DNA of 64,000 bases from Nitrogeniibacter mangrovi (GTDB lineage: Bacteria > Pseudomonadota > Gammaproteobacteria > Burkholderiales > Rhodocyclaceae), in NCBI RefSeq assembly GCF_010983895.1, contig NZ_CP048836.1:3410001-3474000 (forward strand), in the 5' to 3' direction. Below are positions 6,280 to 15,837 of this stretch, in pieces; the first letter of the stretch is position 1; each line of letters starts with the position of its first letter. The notes under the pieces were generated by a model that was not told where the DNA came from, ran no database searches, and worked only from the letters and a program-made list of their open reading frames with translations. A program made the position numbers and the translations under genes.

Positions 6280-8418
6280 TCAGCGCGGACGCCGTGCGAG
6301 CATGCGCGCCTCGGGCAGCCCCACCGCCAGCACCTTGCCGAACTGGTCCGCCGCCATCGGCCGGGCGAACAGGTAGCCCTGCATCACCGGGCAGCCCTCG
6401 GCCTGCAGCACCCGGGCCTGGGCGACCGTCTCGACCCCCTCGGCCACCAGGCCGATGCCGAGGCTGCGGGCCATGCCAATGATGGCGCGCACGATGGCCG
6501 GGTCGTCATGGCCGGCATCGCAATCCTGCACGAAGGAACGGTCGATCTTGAGCGTGTTGACCGCGAAGCGCTTGAGGTAGGCCAGCGACGAGTAGCCGGT
6601 GCCGAAATCGTCCACCGCCAGCGACAGACCCATGTCGTGCATCTGCACCAGCAGTTCCGCGGTGCTGCGGGTATCGCGCATGAGGGCCGATTCGGTCACT
6701 TCGAGTTCGATGAGCGCCGGATCGGTACCGGTCTCGTCCAGTACCGCGCGCACCTGATCGACCAGATCCTGGCGACCGAACTGGCTCGCCGACAGGTTGA
6801 CCGCCACCGGCACGAGGGCATTGCCCGACGCCCGCCATCGCCCCAGGTCCTCGCAGGCCCGTCTCAGCACCCACTGCCCCAGTTGGTGGATCAGGCCGAT
6901 CTCCTCGGCCAGGGGGATGAAGGCATCGGGGCCGATCACCCCTTCGTCGGGATGTTCCCAGCGAATCAGGGCCTCGCAACCGACCACCCGGCCGGCATCG
7001 GCGTCGACCTTGGGCTGGTAGAGCAGGGTGAACTGTTCCCGATCAATGGCCACGCGCAGCGCGTTTTCCATGGACAGGCGCGCGAAGGCATCGACCTTCA
7101 TGCGCTCGGTATAGCACTGGATCGCATCGAGCGCATCGCGGCGGCGCAACGCGCCGAGGGCCATCTCCGCCGATTTGAGCAGCGCTTCGGCACTCTCGCC
7201 ATGCTCCGGGAAGAAGGCCAGTCCGGCACTCAGGGTGAAGGTGAGCGACTGTTCGCCGAGCTTGACCGGCGAGCTGGCGCGGCGCAGCAGTGCCTGCACC
7301 TCCGCCTCGACCTGCTCGCGGCCGCGGGTGCCCTCGATGAACAGTCCGAAGTTGTCGGCGCTCAGGCGCGCCATGCGCGGCGCGTCCATGCTCTGCGGCG
7401 AGCCGCCATCGGGCCCGATGCTGCCGTAGCCCTGGCCGAGGCGCACCGCCAGCACCTGCAGCACCTGATCGGCGGCATCCTGGCCCAGCGTCTCGTTGAT
7501 GCGCTTGAAGCGGTCCACATTGATGAGCACCACCGCGCAATGGCCGCCGCGGGAGCTCTCGCGCATCAGCGCCGACTGTAGCGCCTCGCGGAAATGCGCC
7601 CGGTTGGGCAGCCCGGTGAGGTCGTCGAAGTAGGCCAGCTGGCGGATGCGCCGCTCCGCGTCCACCCGCTCCGTGATGTCCTGCAAGGTGCCCTGGACGC
7701 GGCGCACCGAACCGTCGGCATCGAGAATCGGCACCGCCACCTCCTGGGTGGTGCTGACCATGCCGTCGGGCCGCACGATGCGGTATTCGAGGGTGTAGCG
7801 CTGGCCCTTGCGCACCCCCTCGATGGCCTCGTGCAGCTTCGCCCGGTCGGCCGGATAGACGCGCTCGAACAGGGCCGCCATGCGGGTGCCGAAACCGTCC
7901 GGACTCTCGCCGAACAGGGCGCAGTAGGTGTCGGAGCGGTGACAGGTATCGCTGCCCGGATCCCATTCCCAGCTGCCGATGCGCGCGATCTGCTGGGCCG
8001 AGCGCAGGTTGCGCTCGCTGGCCACCAGTTCGTCGAAGGCGGCCGCGGCGCGCAGCGCATAGCGCACCCGATGACGCAGCAGGGTCCAGTTGATCGGCTT
8101 GGAGATGAAGTCGGTGGCGCCGCTGTCGTAGGCCTTCTCGATGGAGGCGGTGTCCTCCAGGCCGGTAAGCATGATGATGGGCTCGAAGGCGCCGCGCTCG
8201 CGCAGCCGGCGACAGGTCTCGAAGCCGTCCATGCCCGGCATCATCACATCGAGCAGCACCAGATCCGGACGCTGCCGCGCGTAGGCCTCGAGGCCCGCCT
8301 CGCCGTCCGGCGCCTCGTCGACGACGAAGCCGGCCTCTTCGAGCGCCGCGCATGCGAGCATGCGATTGATGTCGTCGTCGTCGATGACCAGCAACCGGAC
8401 CGGATCGGTCTTCGTCAT
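6280..8418 (-). CDS. Response regulator with PAS, degenerate GGDEF and intact EAL domains
   Basis: A 712-residue protein. Receiver domain at about 8-120 with phospho-acceptor Asp57 (LVLLDVMMPGMDG) and lysine in ISKPINW. A PAS fold follows at about 145-250. The GGDEF domain (about 262-430) keeps DDLTGLPNR, but the catalytic loop reads SADNF instead of GGDEF, so it should not make c-di-GMP. The EAL domain (about 450-690) has its key motifs: CEALIRWEHP, NLSASQF, ELEVTESALM, DDFGTGYSSLAYLKR and AEGVET. Predicted activity is phosphorylation-controlled c-di-GMP hydrolysis. Its ATG overlaps the stop of the hybrid kinase gene (ATGA), making it the likely output of that kinase. It is the last gene of the TonB-receptor/YfiR operon. 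Confidence 0.9.
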   Translation of the reverse strand: MTKTDPVRLLVIDDDDINRMLACAALEEAGFVVDEAPDGEAGLEAYARQRPDLVLLDVMMPGMDGFETCRRLRERGAFEPIIMLTGLEDTASIEKAYDSGATDFISKPINWTLLRHRVRYALRAAAAFDELVASERNLRSAQQIARIGSWEWDPGSDTCHRSDTYCALFGESPDGFGTRMAALFERVYPADRAKLHEAIEGVRKGQRYTLEYRIVRPDGMVSTTQEVAVPILDADGSVRRVQGTLQDITERVDAERRIRQLAYFDDLTGLPNRAHFREALQSALMRESSRGGHCAVVLINVDRFKRINETLGQDAADQVLQVLAVRLGQGYGSIGPDGGSPQSMDAPRMARLSADNFGLFIEGTRGREQVEAEVQALLRRASSPVKLGEQSLTFTLSAGLAFFPEHGESAEALLKSAEMALGALRRRDALDAIQCYTERMKVDAFARLSMENALRVAIDREQFTLLYQPKVDADAGRVVGCEALIRWEHPDEGVIGPDAFIPLAEEIGLIHQLGQWVLRRACEDLGRWRASGNALVPVAVNLSASQFGRQDLVDQVRAVLDETGTDPALIELEVTESALMRDTRSTAELLVQMHDMGLSLAVDDFGTGYSSLAYLKRFAVNTLKIDRSFVQDCDAGHDDPAIVRAIIGMARSLGIGLVAEGVETVAQARVLQAEGCPVMQGYLFARPMAADQFGKVLAVGLPEARMLARRPR

Positions 8419-15837: not shown

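What the first reader, a model, noticed from the sequence alone, without database searches (positions are those of the whole stretch)
6280..15837. Five-gene module: two TonB-type receptors, YfiR, CHASE8-like hybrid kinase, EAL output
Seen: tightly spaced same-strand genes, with two- to four-base junctions linking receptor 2, YfiR, kinase and EAL regulator. Known: YfiR in Pseudomonas binds the periplasmic domain of the cyclase YfiN. Inference: here YfiR gates a histidine kinase instead, carrying an outer-membrane receptor signal through an internal phosphorelay (His291, Asp702, His858) to a c-di-GMP phosphodiesterase. That would be an outer-membrane to c-di-GMP pathway distinct from YfiBNR, and from FecA-type sigma/anti-sigma signalling. 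No transport genes for the receptor ligand are nearby, which favours sensing over import.
Basis: partly seen in the sequence, partly recalled or inferred. Interest (0 to 1): 0.75.

Follow-up and report, generated by a model that had tools for sequence, protein, structure and literature searches.

The report
Outer-membrane receptor to c-di-GMP relay
[quoted passage not shown] relatives of the receptor-YfiR pair recur in several bacterial groups, but no experiment has yet tested it.

Summary
In detail: five same-strand genes (TBDR1, TBDR2, YfiR, CHASE8 hybrid kinase, REC-PAS-GGDEF-EAL) lie at 6280-15837 with one 2-nt gap and two 4-nt overlaps, in a genome close to Denitromonas. The arrangement is conserved. 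Of 188 distinct YfiR loci with enough sequence, 114 have a CHASE8 histidine kinase and 28 a CHASE8-GGDEF protein directly downstream; 128 of 187 have a TonB receptor directly upstream, against 0 of 96 control signalling ORFs. The kinase's sensor half matches the DgcN/YfiN model. Receptor and YfiB were not seen together (0 of 100 receptor-linked loci, 6 of 39 others), which suggests the receptor takes YfiB's place. Receptor, YfiR and CHASE8 co-vary, while the kinase core does not follow CHASE8. No FecA-type signalling domain was found (0 of 106). Already known: Malone 2012 reported YfiR-sensor modules with kinase outputs, and NCBIfam holds models for a receptor, YfiR-like and kinase trio. Not found in the papers searched: the TonB receptor as YfiR's outer-membrane partner. 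Verdict: new variant of a known kind (YfiBNR-like). Receptor-to-YfiR and kinase-to-EAL signalling are inferred, not shown.

The parts
13765..15837 (-). TBDR1: TonB-dependent receptor, TOL_0244-like; tandem partner of receptor 2
   Evidence: Pfam Plug 3e-23 and barrel 1e-30; NCBIfam NF053590 510 bits, below its cut-off of 645
11734..13758 (-). TBDR2: TonB-dependent receptor directly upstream of yfiR (GTG 13758 or ATG 13713 start)
   Evidence: Pfam Plug 7e-24 and barrel 6e-34; NF053590 519 bits, below cut-off; N-terminal part matches Plug only, no STN
11198..11731 (-). YfiR/HmsC-like periplasmic protein (DUF4154) with signal-peptide-like N-terminus; ATG at 11731
   Evidence: PF13689 2.2e-45; NF053591 YfiR_like_TOL0243 134.7 bits, above cut-off 125; solved YfiR structures matched, best E 1e-9
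8415..11201 (-). Hybrid sensor kinase TM-CHASE8-TM-HAMP-HisKA-HATPase-REC-REC-Hpt
   Evidence: residues 19-246 match the NCBIfam DgcN/YfiN model 14-231, E 5.5e-19, 68 bits, below the whole-protein cut-off of 325
10752..11060 (-). CHASE8 periplasmic domain (kinase residues 48-150), the predicted YfiR docking site
   Evidence: PF17152 3.6e-13; model of residues 1-248 with mean pLDDT 94.1, Cache/PAS-like matches in PDB
10329..10331 (-). His291, predicted autophosphorylation site (HisKA)
9096..9098 (-). Asp702, predicted phospho-acceptor of receiver 2
8628..8630 (-). His858, predicted Hpt phospho-carrier
6280..8418 (-). Response regulator REC-PAS-GGDEF(degenerate)-EAL, predicted c-di-GMP phosphodiesterase
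   Evidence: catalytic motifs
8248..8250 (-). Asp57, predicted phospho-acceptor of the EAL regulator
   Evidence: DVMMPG begins at residue 57
6358..7065 (-). EAL domain (residues 452-687) with EALIRW, EVTES, DDFGTG, KIDRS and AEGVE motifs
   Evidence: PF00563 1e-76; motifs

Best explanation
The module is a trans-envelope signalling cassette. A TonB-type receptor of the TOL_0244 kind binds an extracellular, perhaps hydrophobic, ligand at the outer membrane. This changes how much free YfiR is available in the periplasm, so the receptor does here what the lipoprotein YfiB does in Pseudomonas. YfiR docks on the CHASE8 domain of the inner-membrane hybrid kinase, as it does on YfiN, and its release or binding switches the kinase. 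Phosphate runs His291 to Asp702 to His858 and then to Asp57 of the REC-PAS-GGDEF-EAL regulator, whose intact EAL domain lowers c-di-GMP. Shown here: gene order, domain make-up, homology of the kinase sensor to YfiN, conserved receptor-YfiR and YfiR-CHASE8 linkage, and mutual exclusion of receptor and YfiB in the loci examined. Inferred: receptor-YfiR contact, direction of control (repression, by analogy with YfiN), phosphotransfer and the c-di-GMP effect. The ligand is unknown.
For: Linkage: 128 of 187 distinct YfiR loci have a receptor directly upstream, and 142 of 188 have directly downstream a CHASE8 protein with a readable kinase (114) or GGDEF (28) output; control 0 of 96 signalling ORFs over 3 kb from any YfiR. 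In the class sample 19 of 26 genomes with DUF4154 (own genome left out) have a receptor beside a YfiR. Pfam-only test in 185 genomes: 29 of 47 DUF4154 hits have CHASE8 within 600 bp downstream, and 29 of 44 CHASE8 hits have DUF4154 just upstream. Receptor side: 16 of the 23 best TOL_0244-type receptors of that sample lie under 1 kb from DUF4154, one more is TBDR1 itself at 2.1 kb, six have none on the same strand of the contig. Pairing persists without CHASE8: 20 of 25 YfiR with no CHASE8 directly downstream still abut a receptor (12 upstream, 8 downstream; counted). Two receptor-YfiR pairs precede one kinase in L056. Sensor: 110 of 111 N-termini match CHASE8 and 111 of 111 the DgcN/YfiN model; these had been chosen by my own CHASE8 profile. 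YfiB and receptor exclude each other (0 of 100 vs 6 of 39). Co-variation in 73 loci: receptor-YfiR 0.31, receptor-CHASE8 0.36, YfiR-CHASE8 0.21, each 0 of 300 permutations; CHASE8-kinase core 0.016. Natural YfiR-kinase fusions in L050 and L272.
Against: No interaction was measured or modelled: only single chains can be folded here. 25 of 111 CHASE8-kinase loci have no receptor directly upstream; no substitute outer-membrane partner was recognised in the ten upstream ORFs scanned out of 39 receptor-less loci, so some work without a linked receptor. Linked receptors are not one clade: 17 changes between linked and unlinked on the receptor tree, 15 of them forced by well-supported branches. The P. 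aeruginosa pocket that holds YfiB Phe57 is partly changed in this YfiR (by eye), and the window's counterpart of the AAVVF motif reads AAMLL, without the aromatic residue. The kinase or GGDEF output changes 13 times on the YfiR tree, but only 3 of these are forced by well-supported branches. Kinase core and YfiR also correlate weakly (0.13, 10 of 300). Linkage and co-variation can reflect shared inheritance, and the sets include near relatives.
Confidence: 0.62

Rival explanations
1. Import, then periplasmic sensing: the receptors are ordinary TonB-driven importers, and YfiR (or CHASE8) binds the imported ligand in the periplasm. YfiR does not touch the receptor; linkage reflects a shared substrate.
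For: P. aeruginosa YfiR binds vitamin B6 and Trp in the pocket that also takes YfiB Phe57, though with Kd values of tens of mmol/L (PMC4887326 section 9). The receptors have no recognised N-terminal signalling domain (0 of 106). TOL_0244 of Thalassolituus was proposed to detect and import long-chain alkane (PMC6304351 passages).
Against: Receptor and YfiB exclude each other, which fits replacement of an outer-membrane partner. No inner-membrane uptake gene was recognised among the ORFs scanned beside the module in the window; other loci were not scanned for this.
Confidence: 0.2
2. YfiR is a redox or envelope-stress repressor of the kinase independent of the receptors, which are merely co-regulated members of the operon.
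For: The cysteines aligned with the P. aeruginosa Cys71-Cys110 pair are kept here (alignment; columns 32 and 70, Cys in 63% and 82% of the kinase set). The literature describes redox control of YfiN through YfiR (PMC4887326 passages).
Against: Receptor-YfiR linkage is nearly as frequent as YfiR-CHASE8 linkage and survives absence of CHASE8 next door; receptor and YfiR distances correlate.
Confidence: 0.12
3. FecA-type surface signalling using the ECF sigma factor and DUF3379 gene next door (5056-6275, plus strand).
For: An ECF sigma factor and a DUF3379 protein lie convergent to the module and were found in 14 loci: eight of the nine same-genus loci, five named records with the same positions as some of these, and L100.
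Against: No STN domain in any of 106 linked receptor N-termini. In the eight other Zoogloea loci (L098, L099, L101-L106), where the module and glnS remain, the pair was not found; L099 and L106 are too short to tell.
Confidence: 0.02

Closest known systems
YfiBNR / AwsXRO / TpbB of Pseudomonas (Malone et al. 2012, PMC3375315)
   Same: YfiR-family periplasmic protein; TM-CHASE8-TM-HAMP sensor homologous to YfiN; adjacent genes; predicted control of c-di-GMP
   Different: Receptor where YfiB would be; hybrid kinase in place of the cyclase; output is a separate EAL protein
YfiR-sensor modules with kinase outputs (in silico survey in Malone et al. 2012, incl. Thauera sp. MZ1T)
   Same: YfiR plus YfiN-type sensor joined to a (hybrid) histidine kinase, YfiB mostly missing
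   Different: The held text has no occurrence of TonB and section 12 names no outer-membrane partner for the kinase forms; its Table S4 could not be read
NCBIfam trio NF053590 (TOL_0244 receptor), NF053591 (TOL_0243 YfiR-like), NF053592 (kinase associated with YfiR-like)
   Same: Same three-gene kind; window YfiR is above the NF053591 cut-off
   Different: Receptors and kinase score below the curated cut-offs; the model names give no mechanism
OmpS alkane sensor of Alcanivorax dieselolei (Wang and Shao 2014, paper not held; cited in PMC6304351, PMC9788540 and PMC5174103)
   Same: TOL_0244, after which the NCBIfam receptor model is named, is reported as 40.3% similar to OmpS, a TonB receptor needed to detect alkanes
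   Different: Whether ompS lies next to a YfiR was not tested; the ligand in this genome is unknown
FecA-FecR-FecI
   Same: TonB receptor signalling across the envelope
   Different: No STN domain; kinase and phosphorelay instead of a sigma factor

Membership tests
YfiBNR | YfiR-family periplasmic protein | tested here: met
   PF13689 2.2e-45; PDB YfiR matches, best E 1e-9. The stricter NCBIfam equivalog NF053586 (sequestration protein YfiR) is below cut-off: 47.7 vs 85 bits
YfiBNR | YfiN-type TM-CHASE8/PAS-TM-HAMP sensor | tested here: met
   CHASE8 3.6e-13; DgcN/YfiN model positions 14-231, 5.5e-19
YfiBNR | GGDEF cyclase output in the sensor protein | tested here: not met
   HisKA-HATPase-REC-REC-Hpt instead
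YfiBNR | YfiB OmpA/Pal lipoprotein | tested here: not met
   No OmpA-type ORF beside YfiR in the window or in any of the 100 receptor-linked loci counted, by a profile built from six YfiB-like proteins
YfiBNR | YfiR binds the sensor and represses it | not testable with these tools
   Single-chain folding only; patch residues partly conserved
TOL_0244/TOL_0243 NCBIfam trio | Score above curated cut-off | tested here: inconclusive
   YfiR above (134.7 vs 125); receptors 510 and 519 vs 645; kinase 128.7 vs 194
FecA-type transducer | N-terminal STN signalling domain | tested here: not met
   0 of 106 linked receptor N-termini, window TBDR2 included; only Plug matched. TBDR1 had no STN match either
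FecA-type transducer | FecR anti-sigma and ECF sigma linked to the receptor | tested here: not met
   No FecR match in the ORFs scanned; ECF plus DUF3379 adjacent but convergent, and not found in six sufficiently long Zoogloea loci that keep the module
Hybrid kinase with Hpt and REC-EAL partner | HisKA His, receiver Asp, Hpt His, partner REC Asp | tested here: met
   His291, Asp702, His858 present; DVMMPG at residue 57 of the regulator
c-di-GMP phosphodiesterase (EAL) | EAL catalytic motifs (recalled as diagnostic) | tested here: met
   EALIRW, EVTES, DDFGTG, KIDRS, AEGVE; activity not tested

The most novel reading that the evidence does not exclude
TonB receptor-YfiR-CHASE8 is a general class of outer-membrane-receptor signalling, separate from FecA-FecR-FecI: receptors without any signalling domain control a diffusible periplasmic relay, YfiR, which drives exchangeable inner-membrane outputs (kinases, GGDEF-EAL, cyclases). 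YfiBNR would be a minority form in which YfiB stands where the receptor stands elsewhere, and alkane sensors such as OmpS/TOL_0244 would signal this way.
Probability: 0.45. Interest if true: 0.8.

Novelty: new variant of a known kind. Interest (0 to 1): 0.6.

Why it matters
Signalling by TonB receptors has been explained mainly through FecA-type transducers (recalled). If the receptor-YfiR unit works as inferred, many TonB receptors without a signalling domain become readable as sensors, YfiR gains a main job beyond YfiBNR, and the missing step between outer-membrane alkane sensors and the inner membrane becomes directly testable.

Tried and rejected
Natural fusions as a route to a modelled interface: the YfiR-kinase fusions found (L050, and L272, which is cut by the end of its locus) lack CHASE8, so they show linkage but no interface. 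Long open frames that looked like receptor-YfiR fusions (L109, L122, L203, L247) carry only a YfiR domain by my profiles and are more likely GC-rich open frame ahead of the gene. Receptor tree, linked against unlinked: 143 receptors, 120 linked and 23 not; 17 changes (shuffled mean 21.6, 1 of 500 as low), so linked receptors are not one clade; of little use as 8 of the 23 are tandem TBDR1 copies. A substitute outer-membrane partner upstream of receptor-less loci: ten ORFs scanned from 39 loci, none recognised. Short ORFs downstream of receptor-less CHASE8-GGDEF loci: 14 loci, ten ORFs scanned, six OmpA; those six are all the loci of the 14 whose GGDEF protein lacks EAL. ECF sigma partner: rejected on synteny. 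A second own-genome DUF4154-like match is below cut-off and is reported separately.

Limits. YfiR matches under 100 residues were dropped; loci sharing the same 90-residue YfiR stretch were merged. The 111 CHASE8 sequences were the window and 110 of 132 diverse picks already found by my CHASE8 profile, so searches check that profile rather than sample freely. The 106 receptor N-termini are the linked receptors with a plug, near-duplicates removed. Co-variation used 73 of 153 CHASE8 loci. The TOL_0244 receptor search scored at most six candidates per genome and its list was cut. The YfiB profile was built from the six proteins it then counted, so divergent YfiB may be missed. Most acidobacterial and verrucomicrobial loci are about 3 kb, so their downstream genes are under-read. 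The receptor-linkage control used a 1000-bp limit, the YfiR count 700 bp.

Literature: searches of open-licence PMC. 'YfiR' with 'TonB' gave 5 papers, none on this linkage judging by titles and starts of abstracts. Subscription papers were not searched; Wang and Shao 2014 is not held. PMC4655355 was seen in listings only.
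Full report
What is there. Five same-strand genes occupy 6280-15837 (minus strand): two TonB-type receptors, a YfiR-family protein, a hybrid histidine kinase with a CHASE8 periplasmic domain, and a REC-PAS-GGDEF-EAL regulator. Junctions are a 2-nt gap between receptor 2 and yfiR, and 4-nt overlaps at yfiR/kinase and kinase/EAL. The EAL motifs are intact and the GGDEF motif is degenerate, so a phosphodiesterase output is predicted. 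The best named matches to the YfiR are unclassified Rhodocyclaceae/Zoogloeaceae, Denitromonas and Zoogloea.

Conservation near home. All nine same-genus genomes searched have a close YfiR (E 2e-69 or better). In the loci fetched from them, eight of nine show receptor(s)-YfiR-CHASE8-kinase-EAL regulator in this order (two receptors in six, one annotated in two, kinase split over two frames in L113); the ninth, L109, is cut by its contig end. A glnS-like gene lies in all nine.

Wider. DUF4154 above or below cut-off (E up to 0.001) was found in 27 of 185 class genomes, 50 of 250 of the order, 24 of 119 of the phylum of an acidobacterial locus and 10 of 115 of the phylum of a verrucomicrobial locus. 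I annotated 286 loci plus the window and kept 191 distinct YfiR. Of the 188 with at least 1.4 kb downstream, 114 have a CHASE8 kinase next, 28 a CHASE8-GGDEF, 10 a CHASE8 domain that is cut or split, 31 nothing recognised, 5 other. Of 187 with at least 600 bp upstream, 128 have a receptor directly upstream on the same strand; by sample: class 19 of 43, order 48 of 65, the acidobacterial phylum 15 of 28, the verrucomicrobial phylum 10 of 14. In the class sample, 19 of 26 genomes other than the own one have a receptor beside at least one YfiR, and 0 of 96 signalling ORFs lying over 3 kb from any YfiR have a receptor just upstream.

Independent profile tests. Using Pfam models alone on 185 class genomes, 29 of 47 DUF4154 hits above cut-off have CHASE8 within 600 bp downstream, and 29 of 44 CHASE8 hits above cut-off have DUF4154 just upstream; 24 genomes have both, 3 only DUF4154, 8 only CHASE8, 150 neither (Fisher p 3e-20). 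The sensor is of the YfiN kind: of 111 N-termini picked by my CHASE8 profile, 110 match Pfam CHASE8 and 111 match the NCBIfam model of DgcN/YfiN, the window kinase over model positions 14-231 at E 5.5e-19; shared HAMP and membrane parts help there, since WalK's model also matches 102 of them, but for the window WalK scores only 18.7 bits against 68.3. AlphaFold gives a confident model (pLDDT 94.1) with Cache/PAS-like PDB matches such as WalK and chemoreceptor sensor domains.

Receptor and YfiR as a unit. The 23 best TOL_0244-type receptors listed for the 185 genomes score 418 bits or more, then scores fall to 247 (at most six candidates scored per genome); 16 of the 23 lie within 1 kb of a DUF4154 hit, one is TBDR1 at 2.1 kb, and six have none on the same strand of their contig. 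Of 25 YfiR with over 3 kb downstream but no CHASE8 directly there, 20 still abut a receptor (12 upstream, 8 downstream; counted). L056 has two receptor-YfiR pairs ahead of one CHASE8 kinase; L173 is an array with four YfiR, several receptors (one in pieces), one CHASE8 kinase and two c-di-GMP regulators. No STN domain was found in 106 linked receptor N-termini. Against a dedicated receptor line: linked receptors do not form one clade.

YfiB or receptor. All six receptor-less loci whose CHASE8-GGDEF protein lacks EAL have an OmpA protein directly downstream, the YfiB-like arrangement. Among loci with enough sequence, 0 of 100 receptor-linked and 6 of 39 others have it (Fisher p 4e-4). This is the main reason to read the receptor as standing in for YfiB. 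The profile was built from those six, so other YfiB may be missed.

Modularity. Distances of receptor, YfiR and CHASE8 correlate (receptor-YfiR 0.31, receptor-CHASE8 0.36, YfiR-CHASE8 0.21; 0 of 300 permutations each). The kinase core does not correlate with CHASE8 (0.016, 110 of 300) and only weakly with YfiR (0.13, 10 of 300) or receptor (0.11, 25 of 300) (73 loci). On the YfiR tree the output changes 13 times between kinase and GGDEF (shuffled mean 25.7), at least 3 forced by well-supported branches. So the sensing side tends to be inherited together while outputs are exchanged. Two YfiR-kinase fusions exist (L050, L272).

Output. Of 82 CHASE8-kinase loci with over 5 kb downstream, 27 have an EAL regulator next. 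Of 28 such regulators examined, 25 match an EAL-motif pattern, 26 a DDFG[TS]G pattern, and 8 keep GGDEF. The window's form, EAL intact and GGDEF lost, is shared by the Denitromonas and most Zoogloea loci in that list.

Interface residues. P. aeruginosa F162 and L183 align with conserved F and L in both kinase and GGDEF sets (numbering by eye). The AAVVF site of YfiN corresponds to AAMLL here; at its last place Y or F stands in 72 of 114 kinase and 19 of 28 GGDEF sequences, so the window is atypical there. This neither proves nor excludes binding.

Prior knowledge. Malone et al. 2012 (PMC3375315; passages, section 12) already reported that divergent YfiN homologues carry sensor kinases, hybrid kinases or GGDEF-EAL, mostly without YfiB, and proposed a modular YfiR-sensor core; 'TonB' does not occur in the held text. 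NCBIfam release 20 has consecutive models for a TOL_0244 receptor, a TOL_0243 YfiR-like protein and a kinase associated with YfiR-like proteins, so curators have seen the neighbourhood. TOL_0244 rises sevenfold on n-C28 alkane over Tween 80 and is 40.3% similar to OmpS, reported as an alkane sensor (PMC6304351 passages; PMC9788540 and PMC5174103 passages). I found no paper describing the TonB receptor as YfiR's outer-membrane partner (searches; open-licence PMC only).

Verdict. It is a new variant of a known kind, a YfiBNR-like system with a receptor at one end and a phosphorelay to an EAL protein at the other. The general claim, that YfiR is a common relay for TonB receptors, is the part worth an experiment.

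Noticed in passing
L138 4876-15048 (own genome, about 288.9-299.0 kb of contig 1): A second receptor-kinase cluster: TonB receptor, a carotenoid/lipocalin-domain protein, a weak DUF4154-like protein (20.8 bits, below cut-off), PAS hybrid kinase with REC and Hpt, REC-GGDEF, then an XylR-like sigma-54 activator. It would have the opposite c-di-GMP output.
   Followed up: partly
L173 1945-19899: Array with four YfiR, several receptors (one in pieces), one CHASE8 hybrid kinase, a REC-GGDEF-EAL and a REC-GGDEF regulator on one strand.
   Followed up: partly
L050 7612-10332 and L272 1-2043: Natural fusions of a YfiR domain to a histidine kinase without CHASE8.
   Followed up: partly
window 5056-6275 (+): ECF sigma factor followed by a DUF3379 protein, with CrcB beside them on the other strand; found in 14 of the fetched loci, nearly all of the same genus.
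   Followed up: yes
window 18603-22859 (+): HlyD-type adaptor, ABC ATPase and two MacB-like permeases: a MacAB-like efflux set beyond the tRNA synthetase gene.
   Followed up: no
   Followed up: no
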